Part shown: piece after piece, positions 38,470 through 44,440 of the stretch | Numbering within the stretch: position 1 is the first letter of the stretch | How the letters are laid out: every line of letters begins with the position of its first letter | Assembly: GCA_019637335.1 (NCBI GenBank) | Contig: JAHBVV010000035.1 | Coordinates: forward strand, 1-64,000 | Length of the DNA stretch: 64,000 nucleotides | Direction: 5' to 3' | From: Candidatus Hydrogenedentota bacterium | GTDB lineage: Bacteria > Hydrogenedentota > Hydrogenedentia > Hydrogenedentales > JAEUWI01 | Notes under the pieces: model-generated | What the model was told of the DNA's origin: nothing | Seen by the model: only the letters and a program-made list of their open reading frames with translations | The model's database searches: none | Position numbers and translations under genes: made by a program

Positions 38470-39495
38470 CTAAAACAACTCGGGCGATTCGTGGCGGGGC
38501 GGCGGGGTGCGTCCCAGGTGCTTCCAGGCCAGGGGGGTGGCGACGCGGCCCTGGGGGGTGCGCTTGAGGAAGCCGAGCTGGATCAGGAAGGGCTCGTGGA
38601 CCTCCTCGAGGGTCTGGCGCTCCTCCCCCACGGCGACGGCGAGCGAGGCCAGTCCGACGGGACCGCCGCCGAACTTTTCGATGGCGGTGCGCAGGATGCT
38701 CCGGTCCATGTCATCGAGGCCGAGGCTGTCGATCCGCAGCAGTTCGAGCGCGGCGTCGGCCATGGGGCGCGTGACGACGCCGTCGCCCTTGACCTGGGCG
38801 TAGTCGCGTACGCGGCGGAGGAGGCGGTTGGCGACGCGGGCGGTGCCGCGGGAGCGCGTGGCGATTTCGAGGGCGCCGTCCTCCTCGATGGGGACTTCGA
38901 GAATGCGCGCGGCGCGGAGCACGATGTGCTTCAGCTCCTCGGGCGAATAGAACTCGAAGCGGCAGGTGTCGCCGAAGCGGGCGCGCAGGGGCGGGGTCAG
39001 GAGGCCCGCGCGGGTGGTCGCGCCGATGAGGGTAAAGGGTTTGAGGCCGATCTTCATCGAGCGCGCCGTGGGGCCCTTGCCCAGCATGATGTCCACCTCG
39101 AAATCTTCCATGGCGGAGTACAGCGTCTCCTCGACGGCATGGTTAAGGCGGTGGATCTCGTCGATGAAGAGGACGTCGAAGGCTTCGAGGCTGGTGAGGA
39201 TGGCGGAGAGGTCCGCCTGGCGCTCGATGACGGGGCCGGAGCTCTGCTTGATGTCGACGCCCATTTCGTTGGCCAGGATCCGCGCCAGGGTGGTCTTTCC
39301 GAGGCCCGGCGGCCCGCTCAGAAGCAGGTGGTCGAGCGGCTCGTTGCGCCCCTTGGCGGCGGCGATGGCGATGGCCAGCTTATCCTTGATGGGCTCCTGG
39401 CCGGGAAACTCGCTCAGGCGCTGCGGGCGGATCTGATCCTCGGCGATGGTGTCCTCGCCCTGGGCGGCCGGGTTGATGATTTCGTCGTGCGCCAT
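38470..39495 (-). CDS. ruvB: Holliday junction branch migration ATPase RuvB
   Basis: This is a 341-residue AAA+ motor of the RuvAB complex, which moves Holliday junctions during recombination and repair. Walker A is [19 protein letters not shown] (near residue 58), Walker B is [10 protein letters not shown], sensor 1 is [11 protein letters not shown], and the C-terminal winged-helix has [20 protein letters not shown] and [17 protein letters not shown]. The length and start ([12 protein letters not shown]) are normal. It begins 6 bases after ruvA, so the two are co-transcribed. ruvC is not in the window. Confidence 0.97.
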
Positions 39496-39501
39496 GGCCG
39501 G

Positions 39502-40107
39502 TTACACCTTCGCCAGCGACCGGAGCGCGGCCCGGACCACGTCCTCGTCGGTCGCGCCTTCGCCGAGCTGCTTGCGGGCGGCGGCGGTGGCCTTTTTCGC
39601 CTCGGCGGGCGTGCACCCGAGCGAGATGAGGGCCTCGTAGGCGTCGTCGCCCTCCGGTGCGGCCTCCGCCTTTTCGGGCTCACCGATAATCGCGTTGAGG
39701 TCGGGGTTCTGCTTCAGTTTGGTCTTCATTTCGAGGACGATGCGCTGCGCCATGGCCTGGCCGACGCCGGGGATCTTCGTGAAGGCCTTCACATCGTTCT
39801 CCAGCACGGCCTGGCCGAAGGCCTGGACGGAGAGTCCCGAGAGGACGTTGAGCGCGACCTTCGGGCCGACCTTGTTGATGGAGAGCAGCGTGGTGAAGAG
39901 GGTTTTCTCCTCTTCCTTCAGAAAGCCGAAGATCTGGAAGGCGTCCTCGCGGATATGGCAGTAGGTCAGGAGCGTGACTTCCTGGTGGACGGCGAGCTTG
40001 CGGTAGACCGTTTCGGGCACGGCAATCTCGTAGCCGGCGCCGCCCACATCCAGGGCGATGTGATCCAGGGATTTTATTGCGACCGTGCCGCGTAAGAAGG
40101 CGAACAT
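39502..40107 (-). CDS. ruvA: Holliday junction DNA helicase subunit RuvA
   Basis: This 201-residue protein forms the tetrameric Holliday-junction-binding platform for RuvB. The N-terminal OB domain starts MFAFLRGTVAIKSLDHIALD, and the helix-hairpin-helix part has INKVGPKVALNVLSG and IPGVGQAMAQRIVLEMK. The flexible acidic linker and domain III (DAYEALISLGCTPAEAKKA) are present, as needed to contact RuvB. ATG 40107 gives the usual N-terminus; the frame is open to 40176, but that part is not family-like. It is the first gene of the ruvAB unit. Confidence 0.96.
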   Translation of the reverse strand: MFAFLRGTVAIKSLDHIALDVGGAGYEIAVPETVYRKLAVHQEVTLLTYCHIREDAFQIFGFLKEEEKTLFTTLLSINKVGPKVALNVLSGLSVQAFGQAVLENDVKAFTKIPGVGQAMAQRIVLEMKTKLKQNPDLNAIIGEPEKAEAAPEGDDAYEALISLGCTPAEAKKATAAARKQLGEGATDEDVVRAALRSLAKV

Positions 40108-40212
40108 GGGTTGGTTGGGCCTCGGTAATGTGGTTTCCTGCGGCCTACTGTACTGAATATAAATACAGATTTTCAATTCACATCGGCTACCGAGGGAAAA
40201 CAGCCCGGGAGT

Positions 40213-40464
40213 TCAGCGGGTCGCTTCGACGGTGGCCTCCAGCAAGGCCCGCAGAAATTCGGGCGCGAAGTCTGCGCCGTTCTCCCACGCGAGGGTATGT
40301 CCCGCAAGGTGGAAGTTGCGGAAGTACGCTGGATTGTTGAGTGGCTCGAATATCTCTCCGTCCAGTTCTCCCGCCAGATCGACCTCGCCGGAGGCGCCGT
40401 CGTTAAACGTCAGGTGGACGCGAAAGTCCCCAAGGTAGGATGCATCAATAACCCAAGGTATCAT
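40213..40464 (-). CDS. DUF2442 domain protein, probable partner of DUF4160
   Basis: This is an 83-residue protein. The DUF2442 pattern is visible: IDASYLGDFRVHLTFNDGAS, EVDLAGELDGEIFEPLNN and FRNFHLAGHTLAWENGADF. In many genomes this family is encoded directly after a DUF4160 gene, and the two are treated as a putative toxin-antitoxin-like module, though the biochemistry is unproven. ATG 40464 has GGAG 9 bases upstream and starts 5 bases after the DUF4160 stop codon. Because the DUF4160 gene has lost its start, this gene may now be an orphan. Confidence 0.8.
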   Translation of the reverse strand: MIPWVIDASYLGDFRVHLTFNDGASGEVDLAGELDGEIFEPLNNPAYFRNFHLAGHTLAWENGADFAPEFLRALLEATVEATR

Positions 40465-40469
40465 CAGAT

Positions 40470-40718
40470 TCACTCCAGTGGCGCTATCTTCTTTAAAGGC
40501 CGGCGTTGCTGCGCCAGGACCCAGTTGTCGCGCAATTCGTCCTGCCTTGCAGCATACCACTCCAAAACCAGGTTAAGCGCGCGACGTGGGAACCTGCCCG
40601 AGACAATCCCAGTTTCGATTTCCACCGTAATCGTATACTCGCCATACTCCGCGTGGAAGTGGGCAGGCGGATGGTCTTTGTAATAGAGGTAGATGGTGAT
40701 TCGATGAAATCTACATAT
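40470..40718 (-). pseudogene. DUF4160 gene lacking a start codon
   Basis: On the minus strand an open frame gives ICRFHRITIYLYYKDHPPAH, then FHAEYGEYTITVEI, GRFPRRALNLVLEWYAARQD and ELRDNWVLAQQRRPLKKIAP, ending at 40470. This is a nearly complete DUF4160 protein (usual start Met-Pro-x-Ile-x-x-Phe). The codon before Ile is TAA at 40719-40721, exactly where a dispersed repeat (40721-40750) begins, so the first codons appear replaced by the repeat. Only a rare ATA start would allow translation. The family is small (about 80 residues), and the coding part is otherwise undamaged, which suggests a recent event. Confidence 0.8.
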
Positions 40719-40720
40719 TT

Positions 40721-40750
40721 ATAACAGTTTTGCCGTCTGAAGCAAAGTAG
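40721..40750 (-). repeat. Dispersed short repeat, CTTCAGACGGCTAAAG family
   Basis: Minus strand reads TGCTTCAGACGGCAAAACTG then TTAT. It abuts the first surviving codon of the DUF4160 gene. Confidence 0.7.
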
Positions 40751-41502
40751 AACTTCAACCACGAAGGTCACGAAGAAAAGCAGAGAAGAGCTTTGACCGC
40801 AGAGAGCGCAGAGGGTGTTGTTGTGCGCGTACGGACTGGTGCGGTTGGTTGAATGAGGGCGAGTTTTTAACCACGAATGGACACCAATGCACACGAATGC
40901 GCCGGGAGCAGCGGCTGGCCGCGATCAGGAGCTGTGACCACGGATTACACAGCGCAGCCTCTGGCCGCAACCAAAGTAATGATCACCACGAAGTGCGCGA
41001 AGGTCACGAAGAGAAAGAGAGACGGTAGCACTTTAGCGGAACGAAGCACCCAACGCCTTGGAGGCGATTTTCGGTCAAGACGGGCGTGAATAGCAGGATC
41101 GCGGACATTTTCGCCTCGGCGGACCTTCGGCACGTCCGCGGCAACGGGAGCTCGGGAAATAAAGTGAGGTAAGTGGTTTGGAATGGAATCCCGGCGTCCC
41201 AAGGAGCGGAAAGCATTGGGGACCCGCGCCTCTTCAAGTACACATCGACCACGAAATGTCTTGCGCTCGTCCCGCCGCGGAGATGAATGTCCGCGATCCT
41301 TTGCGCCTTTCGGCGCTGAACACAGCCGGGACGCCCGCCTCCGGCGCGTCATGGAGCTGTGCCACTTTCCTTGCGAGGTGGTTTTGCTGGGGTGAGGGGA
41401 ACTTTTTGGAGGTGGGCTCACGTTGCCGCAGGCAAGAATGCCCGCGATCCTTTAGCCGTGCATCCTCTCAAATTGCCGGAGTGCCTGGGACTATATATGC
41501 TC
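40751..41502. other. Repeat-derived intergenic region
   Basis: No gene is supported. It holds decayed copies of the ACCACGAAGGTCACGAAG type (about 40758 and 40984), a CCACGAATGGACACCAATGC stretch (about 40872), an ATGTCCGCGATCCTTT element in opposite orientations near 41093 and 41285 with a further partial copy near 41443, and a second copy of the short dispersed repeat at 41023. Such strings are common in GC-rich planctomycete- and verrucomicrobia-like genomes. Confidence 0.55.
41023..41047 (-). repeat. Dispersed short repeat, CGGCTAAAGTG variant
   Basis: Minus strand reads TGCTTCGTTCCGCTAAAGTG, closest to the copy at 14768. Confidence 0.55.
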
Positions 41503-41532
41503 GCTACTTCAGACGGCTAAACTGTTACGAAT
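41503..41532 (+). repeat. Dispersed short repeat, CTTCAGACGGCTAAAG family
   Basis: Reads GCTACTTCAGACGGCTAAAC then TGTTACGAAT. It is the most complete plus-strand member in this part of the window. Confidence 0.7.
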
Positions 41533-41775
41533 ATCGTTTCTTCAGCGCCGGAGGCGCCGATCATACCAGCCTGTTCCGCAGGGCCAGGAAGAATGCCGAC
41601 TTCCCCACAGACTTTCAAGACGCGTTGCGTCACCCATTACGGATGAAATCGTGCCCCTGACTCTTGGCGCTGTTCTGGAGTCTCGCACGCTCAAGCCTTC
41701 GCGGCGGAGCCGCGGAGCTTGAACGTGGCGCCCGTGGCTCCCTTTGAAATTTCAGCAGAAACCCCCATAAAAAAA

Positions 41776-42105
41776 GGGCGCCGCCGGGACCAAGGGGGGA
41801 TCGTGCTTCAGGTCGCCGGCGGCATGCAGGGGGTTGAGGAAGATCGTTCAAATGTCGTTTTTGGGACCCCTTGCATCCGGTTAAGGAGGGCGCCGCCGGG
41901 ACCCAGGGGGATCGTGCTTCGGGTCACCGGCGGCATGCAGGGGGTTGAGGAAGATTGTTCAACTGTTGGGCCGGGCTCCCTCGCTCCAGGTTAAGGAGGG
42001 CGCCGCCGGGACCCAGGGGGGATCGTGCTTCGGGTCGCCGGCGGCATGCAGGGGGTTGAGGAAGCTCTTTCAACTATTAGTTCGGGCTAAACCACCCGTT
42101 CTGGT
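41776..42105. repeat. 110-bp tandem repeat, three copies
   Basis: GGGCGCCGCCGGGACC starts copies at 41776, 41888 and 41998 (periods 112 and 110). Each contains GATCGTGCTTC, GGTCGCCGGCGGCATGCAGG and GGTTGAGGAAG. The last copy overlaps the 3' end of the small acidic gene on the minus strand. Confidence 0.9.
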
Positions 42106-42554: not shown

Positions 42555-43538
42555 TCAGGCGTTCCGGGCATGGTGGAGGGTGTGGATCGTGACCTCGGGC
42601 GGACAGAAGAAGCGTACGGGGACCATGCTGCAACCGGCGCCGGCGGAGGTGTAGCCCTGGAGCTGGTGGTAGGTCCAGGGGCCGCTGTCCATGGCGCGGG
42701 GATGCTGGGCGTTGCGGAGCGGGGCGAAGCCGCCGGGCAGGCAGATCTGCCCGGCGTGGGTGTGGCCGCAGAGGACGTAGTCGATGCCGCAGGCGAGGGC
42801 TTTGCGGTAGGTTTCGGCGGTGTGGGAGAGGAGGATGGTGGTTGCTTCCTGGGGGATGCCTTCCAGGGCCCTTTCGAGGTTTTCCGTTTCGTAGTAGTGG
42901 GGGTCGTCGATTCCGGCGAGGTAAATCCGGTCGCCGCCGCGATCAATGGTTGCGTGCTCGTTGAGGAGCATGCGCAGGCCCATGGCCTCGAGTGGGGACG
43001 CCATGCGGAGGCTGTCGTGGTTGCCGAGAATGCCGTAGGCCGGCGCTTTCAGGACTTTTACCACGCGGGCGGTCTCTTCCATGGCGCGGTCGATCGGTCC
43101 GAAGGTCTCCGCGCGGTAGTCGCCGGTGATGACACAGAGATCGTATTCGAGCGTTTCGAGGAGACTGCAGAGCGCGGCGGTGATCCCGGGGTCGATATCG
43201 AGGTGGAGGTCGCTGAGGTGGAGGATGCGAAAGCCCTCGAAGGCCGGGGGGAGGCGGCGGAGGAGGATTTCGCGTTCGACGAGGCGATGGCGCCGCGCGT
43301 TCCAGTTGCCCCACCAGTAGGTGAGGCTGGCGCGCAGGATAAGCTGAAGGGTGATGCGCAGCACGGGGAAGTTTTCGGGGTGGAACCGTGTCCGGCCCCC
43401 CCCGAAAACTTCCGCGGCGTGGAAATGCTCGACGTTCATGCGTTGGCGGTAGTGGTGCGCGCCGAGGCGATCGCGCAGGCGCGGGAATTCCAGGGGAATG
43501 CTTTCACCACCGTCAGGGATGGTGGGCTGCTGATTCAT
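42555..43538 (-). CDS. Calcineurin-like metallophosphoesterase
   Basis: This is a 327-residue dinuclear metal phosphohydrolase. All motifs are present: [40 protein letters not shown] and [17 protein letters not shown]. This order matches the YkuE/UDP-diacylglucosamine-hydrolase-like group. The N-terminal 100 residues include a basic segment but no clear transmembrane helix. Its ATG overlaps the stop of the upstream isomerase gene by one base (TGATG), so the two are translationally coupled. Substrate unknown; phospholipid- or nucleotide-type phosphodiesters are usual for the group. Confidence 0.88.
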
Positions 43539-44440
43539 CAGGCCGTGGCCGCCCCCTCGGCGAAAAGCGTCATGCGCCGGGACAATTCGCGCAGCCAGGC
43601 ATCGTCGCCCCGCCCGAATTCCTCGGTCACCCAGCCGGTATAGCCGATATCGGCCAGGGCCTGGCGGACAACGGGCCAATTCACGTCGCCCTCGTAGGGG
43701 AGGTTGCTCCACTCATAGGACTTGCGGGTGAAGTCCTTGACGTGGATGCGGCGGATGCGCTTTCCGAGGGTGCGGATCCAGTCCTCGGGATAGCCGAAGA
43801 TAACGACATTACCGATATCGAAGTAGGCGTGCACCCAGGGGGATTCAAACTGGTCGACATAGGTGGCGAATTCGAGGGGGCTGAGGAGGAACTTATTCCA
43901 GACGTTTTCGACCGCGATGACGACGCCGAGTTCCTCGGCGAGGGGGATCATGGGGCGGATGTTTTTCTGGGAGTTCTCCCAGGCCTGGGCGTAGCCGACT
44001 TCCTCGTTCACCACGGCGGGGACGAGCAGCACCGTGTCGCATCCCATGGCGTGCGCGGTCCGGAGGGCCTGGGCGATTTCGGCCTGGCCCTTTTTGATGA
44101 CCTCGGGGTCGGGGCTGGACATGGGCGCGCCCCAGCCGCCGTAGGTGATGGAATGTACGGGCACACCCGCTTCCCGCGCCTGATCACCGCGGATTTTGGC
44201 GGCGTCGAGGTCGTCCATGGGGTAGGCCTCGATGCCGTCGAAACCGGCGTCCTTCGCCAGGGCGAATTTTTCCGGATCGGTGGGGAGATCCGGAAGTTTG
44301 TTGTATTGGAGAGCCTTCTGGAGGGGCGGGAAGCTGGCTTCTGCCGCGGCGCGGCTTGCGGAAGCGGCCAGGGCGATGCCGGCGCCGGCCGCGGCGGTGT
44401 GCTGGAGGAAGCCGCGCCGGTTCATGGCGTAGGGGGACAT
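43538..44440 (-). CDS. Tat-exported sugar phosphate isomerase/epimerase
   Basis: This is a 300-residue xylose-isomerase-like TIM barrel with a twin-arginine signal [20 protein letters not shown]. Barrel and metal-site segments include [63 protein letters not shown] and [12 protein letters not shown]. Several ATG codons lie close together (44449, 44446, 44440 and 44425); 44440 is preferred because AAAGG sits about 8 bases upstream. Export of a sugar isomerase is typical of planctomycete-like bacteria. It is coupled to the metallophosphoesterase gene downstream. The physiological substrate is unknown. Confidence 0.88.

What the first reader, a model, noticed from the sequence alone, without database searches (positions are those of the whole stretch)
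40470..40750. Dispersed repeat has replaced the start of a DUF4160 toxin-antitoxin-like gene
The DUF4160 reading frame is complete from its fourth or so residue to the stop, but the codon upstream is TAA inside the dispersed repeat whose end abuts the gene. The partner DUF2442 gene is intact 5 bases downstream. This is a snapshot of repeat insertion or recombination silencing one half of a module, and it gives the element's exact end.
Basis: seen in the sequence. Interest (0 to 1): 0.6.

Follow-up and report, generated by a model that had tools for sequence, protein, structure and literature searches.

The report
Jumping-DNA composite beheads bacterial toxin gene
A piece of non-coding jumping DNA, of a kind scattered through this bacterium's genome, has landed in the first codons of a gene for a self-poisoning protein and, after a rearrangement, left it without a start while its antidote gene stayed intact; this is an informative but ordinary kind of gene damage.

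Summary
The DUF4160 frame (40470-40718, minus) is open for 82 codons, lacks any start, and meets an in-frame TAA at once; DUF2442 is intact 5 bases on. The stop straddles the junction: its T is the repeat's last base, its AA lies outside. The "dispersed repeat" is a bounded mobile element, 40721-41528: 21-bp inverted ends (167 matches genome-wide, 0 in the reversed control), 8-bp target duplications in 37 of 63 adjacent end pairs, and the same ends flanking a one-ORF IS66 transposase elsewhere. It is therefore a non-autonomous composite of IS66 type (ISBst12-like). Homologues place the start exactly three codons upstream (77 of 79), so the element cut the third codon. It is more than a simple insertion: the flanking 8-mers match at only 4 of 8, whereas five other nested copies match at 7-8 of 8, and three congeners keep the distal genes beside PilZ/glycosyltransferase genes, far from ruvA or DUF4160. 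Insertion followed by recombination or adjacent deletion fits best. Published work makes DUF4160 the toxin and DUF2442 the antitoxin, so the toxin half was lost, the survivable direction. Known kind of event; modest interest.

The parts
40213..40464 (-). DUF2442 gene, intact; antitoxin half (DhiA-like), ATG at 40464
   Evidence: Pfam PF10387 E 4.4e-12; antitoxin role from PMC8198452 and PMC12724237
40470..40718 (-). DUF4160 remnant, 82 codons plus stop, no start codon; toxin half (DhiT-like)
   Evidence: homologues start three codons further upstream in 77 of 79 readable loci
40713..40720 (.). gene-side 8-bp target-site sequence next to the element; its last six bases on the gene strand are the first two codons of the remnant
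   Evidence: position fixed by the GTAAC...GTTAC termini and 8-bp duplications of other copies; reads as the family's E-I-C context
40721..41528 (.). IS66-type non-autonomous composite element, 808 bp
40722..40742 (+). outer terminal inverted repeat next to the toxin gene
41507..41527 (-). outer terminal inverted repeat at the far end
41025..41528 (.). inner element: internal end at 41026 paired with the far end; colinear over its full length with a separate TIR-to-TIR element in L006 (76%)
41529..41536 (.). far-side 8-mer, only 4 of 8 like the gene-side one: no target duplication
41607..41758 (.). second, unrelated dispersed repeat (about 150 bp) in the far flank
   Evidence: 48 matches in the genome
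42077..42301 (-). 74-aa ORF conserved next to the phosphoesterase in three congeners; no Pfam match
42555..43712 (-). calcineurin-like phosphoesterase gene, marker of the far-side neighbourhood
39502..40107 (-). ruvA, marker of the gene-side neighbourhood (ruvB follows at 38470-39495)

Best explanation
An IS66-family (ISBst12-like) non-autonomous composite element, moved in trans by a transposase such as the one on contig C4, inserted into codon 3 of a DUF4160 toxin gene in a DUF4160-DUF2442 (DhiTA-type) operon upstream of ruvAB. A second event, either recombination with another copy of the dispersed ends or an element-adjacent deletion, then replaced everything beyond the far end with DNA from the orf74/phosphoesterase neighbourhood. 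This removed the promoter, the start codon and the second target duplicate. The toxin can no longer be started; the antitoxin frame survives. Shown: the element's identity, its ends, the missing start, the mismatched flanks and the broken synteny. Inferred: the order of events, the transposase that acted, and loss of toxin activity.
For: Inverted ends: 167 genome matches against 0 in the reversed control. Duplications: 37 of 63 adjacent end pairs match at 7-8 of 8 positions, against about 0.8 in 1000 shuffles. The same ends flank a 493-codon frame with DDE_Tnp_IS66 and zf-IS66 domains. Five other nested copies (L005, L006, L007, L008, L034) carry outer duplications of 7-8 of 8, so such composites move as units; L034 has the same end pair as this copy. 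This copy scores 4 of 8. The homologue start lies three codons upstream in 77 of 79 loci. Far-side genes sit beside PilZ/glycosyltransferase in G001, G002 and G003, with no DUF4160 or ruvA within the stretches read; in this genome the PilZ gene is on another contig. The longest exact run shared with 116 other fetched own-genome loci is 69 bp, which argues against misassembly. DUF4160 is the toxin and DUF2442 the antitoxin in two experimental papers.
Against: The predicted lost junction was not found, so the rearrangement is inferred only from mismatch and synteny. The PilZ contig ends about 0.8 kb past that gene without a matching repeat. 26 of 63 adjacent pairs also lack a good duplication, some of them simple elements, so a 4 of 8 score is not unique. 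The IS66 copy itself lacks a matching duplication (3 of 8). A 1-base difference at the element's last position (A for G) leaves its end slightly atypical.
Confidence: 0.75

Rival explanations
1. Simple old insertion: the element went into the gene once, and mutation has since blurred the target duplication and the far-side codons.
For: The central four positions of the two 8-mers agree. A glycine invariant in 80 of 80 homologues is arginine here, which suggests some relaxation.
Against: 4 of 8 duplication bases differ while 82 codons stay open and the best copies of the element parts are 92-94% alike. The far-side genes belong elsewhere in three congeners.
Confidence: 0.12
2. Assembly artefact: two unlinked loci were joined through a repeat.
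For: The element family is repeated and the expected neighbour (PilZ) sits near a contig end.
Against: The 851-base query has no second copy of its full length; the best other match is 80% over 61-617. The longest exact run shared with 116 other loci is 69 bp. The genome has only 55 contigs for 7.16 Mb.
Confidence: 0.08
3. The DUF4160 protein is still made, by initiation at AUA or an internal codon, or by re-initiation after the junction stop.
For: The frame is open and 25 of 28 strongly conserved columns are kept. A few homologues have CTG, ATT or ATA at the usual start position.
Against: No visible ribosome-binding site by eye; no sigma-70-like promoter within 40400-41600 (a crude scan); the next standard start leaves 51 aa; the invariant glycine is lost.
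Confidence: 0.05

Closest known systems
IS66 family, ISBst12 group (for example ISDge4, PMC12898284, passages read)
   Same: Ends begin GTAAC, 8-bp direct repeats, single transposase ORF; here GTAAC ends, 8-bp duplications and a 493-codon single ORF on the C4 copy
   Different: The element in the window carries no transposase gene; it is a mosaic of non-coding modules with an internal end
MITEs and other non-autonomous IS derivatives (defined in passing in PMC3281130)
   Same: Short, non-coding, TIR-bounded, duplicating the target, many copies
   Different: Variable length (150 to 1,615 bp for pairs with good duplications), several unrelated interiors on the same ends, nested composites; not found described for IS66 with my searches
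DhiTA (DUF4160/DUF2442) type II toxin-antitoxin, Dickeya dadantii (PMC8198452) and Thermus plasmids (PMC12724237)
   Same: Domain pair, toxin-first order, gap of a few bases
   Different: The toxin gene here has no start codon

Membership tests
IS66 family (ISBst12 group) derived element | terminal inverted repeats beginning GTAA(C) | tested here: met
   Other copies begin GTAAC; this copy has A for G at the gene-side outermost base
IS66 family (ISBst12 group) derived element | 8-bp target-site duplication | tested here: not met
   Met by the repeat family as a whole (37 of 63 adjacent pairs at 7-8 of 8) but not by this copy (4 of 8); attributed to rearrangement. So membership is claimed for the repeat family by its ends and duplications, and for this copy by its ends and interior only
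IS66 family (ISBst12 group) derived element | IS66 transposase with the same ends in the same genome | tested here: met
   C4:200944-201738 PF03050 E 2e-38 inside ends 1523 bp apart
IS66 family (ISBst12 group) derived element | mobilisation by that transposase | not testable with these tools
   needs a transposition assay
DhiTA toxin-antitoxin (DUF4160/DUF2442) | adjacent DUF4160 then DUF2442, same strand, few bases apart | tested here: met
   same in 74 of 80 fetched loci
DhiTA toxin-antitoxin (DUF4160/DUF2442) | complete toxin frame with start | tested here: not met
   a broken remnant of such a module, not a working member
DhiTA toxin-antitoxin (DUF4160/DUF2442) | toxicity and neutralisation | not testable with these tools
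   shown for other members only (PMC8198452, PMC12724237)

The most novel reading that the evidence does not exclude
One genome uses IS66-type ends as a shared chassis for a large, mosaic set of non-coding elements (about 167 ends, at least eight kinds of interior) whose nested composites transpose as units and also act as crossover points that rearrange the chromosome. Here such an event disarmed a toxin-antitoxin module on the toxin side, leaving an antitoxin that could protect against incoming DhiTA plasmids.
Probability: 0.25. Interest if true: 0.45.

Novelty: new member of a known kind. Interest (0 to 1): 0.27.

Why it matters
It fixes the exact ends, target duplication and likely transposase family of an abundant repeat that annotation would leave unnamed. 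It also gives a clear natural case of a DUF4160/DUF2442 module broken on the toxin side, as expected if DUF4160 is the toxin. The general biology, a mobile element disrupting a gene, is well known.

Tried and rejected
Reciprocal junction search in the own genome: 3 matches within 3 mismatches, none kept as the lost junction. The best (C14:86409) lacks the element end and lies, by eye, in what looks like a kinase gene on the other strand, so it is taken as chance; the other two have 3 mismatches and were not read further. Plasmid collection search with the element region: no match. Element search in 68 relatives (the own genome counted): 17 have matches; outside the own genome only to short pieces at E about 1e-10 or weaker, so no ortholog of this insertion was found. 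The idea that the inner D-to-far-end arrangement is itself a local chimera was dropped, because L106 and L054 show a similar end combination with perfect duplications. Literature searches for IS66 MITEs, orphan antitoxins with IS and MITEs in Hydrogenedentes returned nothing relevant apart from one Pseudomonas paper (PMC12888890, passages), which concerns a different MITE with 4-bp repeats. Other papers (PMC8198452, PMC12724237, PMC12654330, PMC3281130, PMC12898284) were read as passages only.

Full report
What is in the sequence. On the minus strand a DUF4160 frame runs from 40718 to 40470, open for 82 codons and preceded at once by an in-frame TAA. Pfam gives DUF4160 at E 5.3e-19 and, 5 bases on, DUF2442 at E 4.4e-12. 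No ATG, GTG or TTG precedes the domain in frame; the next standard start in frame is a GTG at 40625, leaving 51 residues. One detail changes: the stop straddles the junction, its T being the element's last base and its AA belonging to the flank.

What the repeat is. Inverted arms of 28 nt at 89% lie at 40715-40742 and 41507-41534. The 21-base core has 4 matches in the window, 0.00 expected, and 167 in the genome (103 forward, 64 reverse), with 0 for the reversed pattern. One search listed only about 100 of the 167 places; I had loci for 30 of these and fetched 40 more regions, so the structural counts cover part of the set. In those loci, together with the loci, 63 distinct adjacent end pairs were found. 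With the termini set at GTAAC...GTTAC, the 8-mers on the two sides match at 8 of 8 in 26 pairs and 7 of 8 in 11. Shuffling partners gives about 0.8 pairs at 7-8. The remaining 26 pairs score 6 or less. The elements are therefore mobile, with 8-bp target duplications.

Which family. PF03050 (IS66 transposase) has four matches in the genome. The best, C4:200944-201738 at E 2e-38, lies in a 493-codon frame bounded by the same ends 1523 bp apart. A rescan finds DDE_Tnp_IS66 at E 4e-38 and zf-IS66 at E 3.5e-9. A 2026 paper describes ISDge4 of the ISBst12 group of IS66 with ends starting GTAAC/GTGAC, an 8-bp repeat and one 449-aa transposase (PMC12898284, passages); PMC3281130 lists 8-bp repeats for two IS66 elements (passages). 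Against this, the C4 copy's own flanks match at only 3 of 8.

Anatomy of this copy. The 808-bp element carries no transposase. It has an internal end at 41026, and 41025-41528 is colinear over its full length with a separate end-to-end element in L006 at 76%. Five other loci with an internal end (L005, L006, L007, L008, L034) have outer duplications of 7-8 of 8, as do L054 and L148, where simple elements lie in series. L034 shares both outer end types with this copy, 93-94% over the end pieces. So nested composites of this sort move as units. Other pairs with inner ends (14 of 21) score 6 or less; most of these combine ends of different elements.

Where it hit. In 80 DUF4160 loci from named genomes (the best 80 of 549), one is cut by the contig end. 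Of the other 79, 76 have ATG, GTG or TTG followed by a proline codon exactly three codons before the residue aligned to the remnant's first, and L196 has ATG there without proline: 77 of 79. The exceptions are L209 and L233. In the 30 whole-genome loci, one is the window itself and two align only partly; of the other 27, 25 have ATG, GTG or TTG at that place, and L067 and L092 have CTG and ATT. The gene-side 8-mer fits the coding context of close relatives, E-I-C. The insertion point is therefore in codon 3.

Why not a simple insertion. The gene-side and far-side 8-mers match at 4 of 8, within chance (the shuffle gives about 14 of 63 pairs at 4 or more). A search for the expected lost junction found no copy. 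In G001, G002 and G003, all same genus, the phosphoesterase and the 74-aa ORF of the far side are followed by the same short repeat, then a PilZ gene and a family-9 glycosyltransferase (G001 genes by Pfam, the others by nucleotide similarity). DUF4160, DUF2442 and ruvA are absent from the 5.2-5.5 kb read there. In this genome the PilZ gene is on contig C50, which ends about 0.8 kb beyond it without a recognisable repeat. ruvA in the congeners lies on other contigs; in G002 a DUF2442 whose similarity is split over two frames stands upstream of ruvC-ruvA with no DUF4160 in the 531 bases before it, which hints that the module is old at the ruv locus and decaying there too. The chance that the junction is a misassembly is small: the longest exact run of 40700-41760 shared with 116 other fetched loci is 69 bases, though this does not cover the whole genome.

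Consequence. In Dickeya, overproduction of any of the three toxins tested, DhiT (DUF4160) included, reduces growth and the pair autoregulates like a type II system (PMC8198452, passages). In Thermus, a plasmid lacking the DUF2442 gene could not be introduced, while one lacking the DUF4160 gene could (PMC12724237, passages). The order toxin-antitoxin is conserved: 74 of 80 loci have DUF2442 within 300 bp downstream. So the half lost here is the toxin, the direction a cell survives. The remnant keeps 25 of 28 strongly conserved columns but has arginine where 80 of 80 homologues have glycine; 15 of the 81 sequences compared, the window included, depart at 3 or more such columns, so overall decay is mild. 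The native promoter side is gone and a crude scan finds no sigma-70-like promoter in 40400-41600, so DUF2442 expression is open.

Verdict. The event is a mobile-element disruption followed by rearrangement. The element family is an unlabelled but recognisable IS66 derivative, and the gene pair is known.

Noticed in passing
window 41607-41758: A second, unrelated dispersed repeat of about 150 bp, 48 matches in the genome, in the far flank next to the element.
   Followed up: partly
window 41770-42075: Tandem copies of a roughly 111-bp unit between the second repeat and the 74-aa ORF; congeners carry related sequence at the same place.
   Followed up: partly
L209, L092, L067: DUF4160 homologues with ATA, ATT or CTG at the position where others have the start codon: other start losses or non-standard starts.
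   Followed up: no
L176 (G002:C569): Same-genus genome with an apparently frameshifted DUF2442 upstream of ruvC-ruvA and no DUF4160 in the 531 bases before it.
   Followed up: partly
G000 genome-wide: Elements with the same IS66-type ends have at least eight different interior kinds, some of near-fixed length (223 bp, 287 bp, 305-306 bp), most of these with perfect or near-perfect 8-bp duplications.
   Followed up: partly
window 40108-40212: ruvC is not beside ruvA in this genome; RuvC matches lie on C24 and C7, unlike G002 where ruvC adjoins ruvA.
   Followed up: partly
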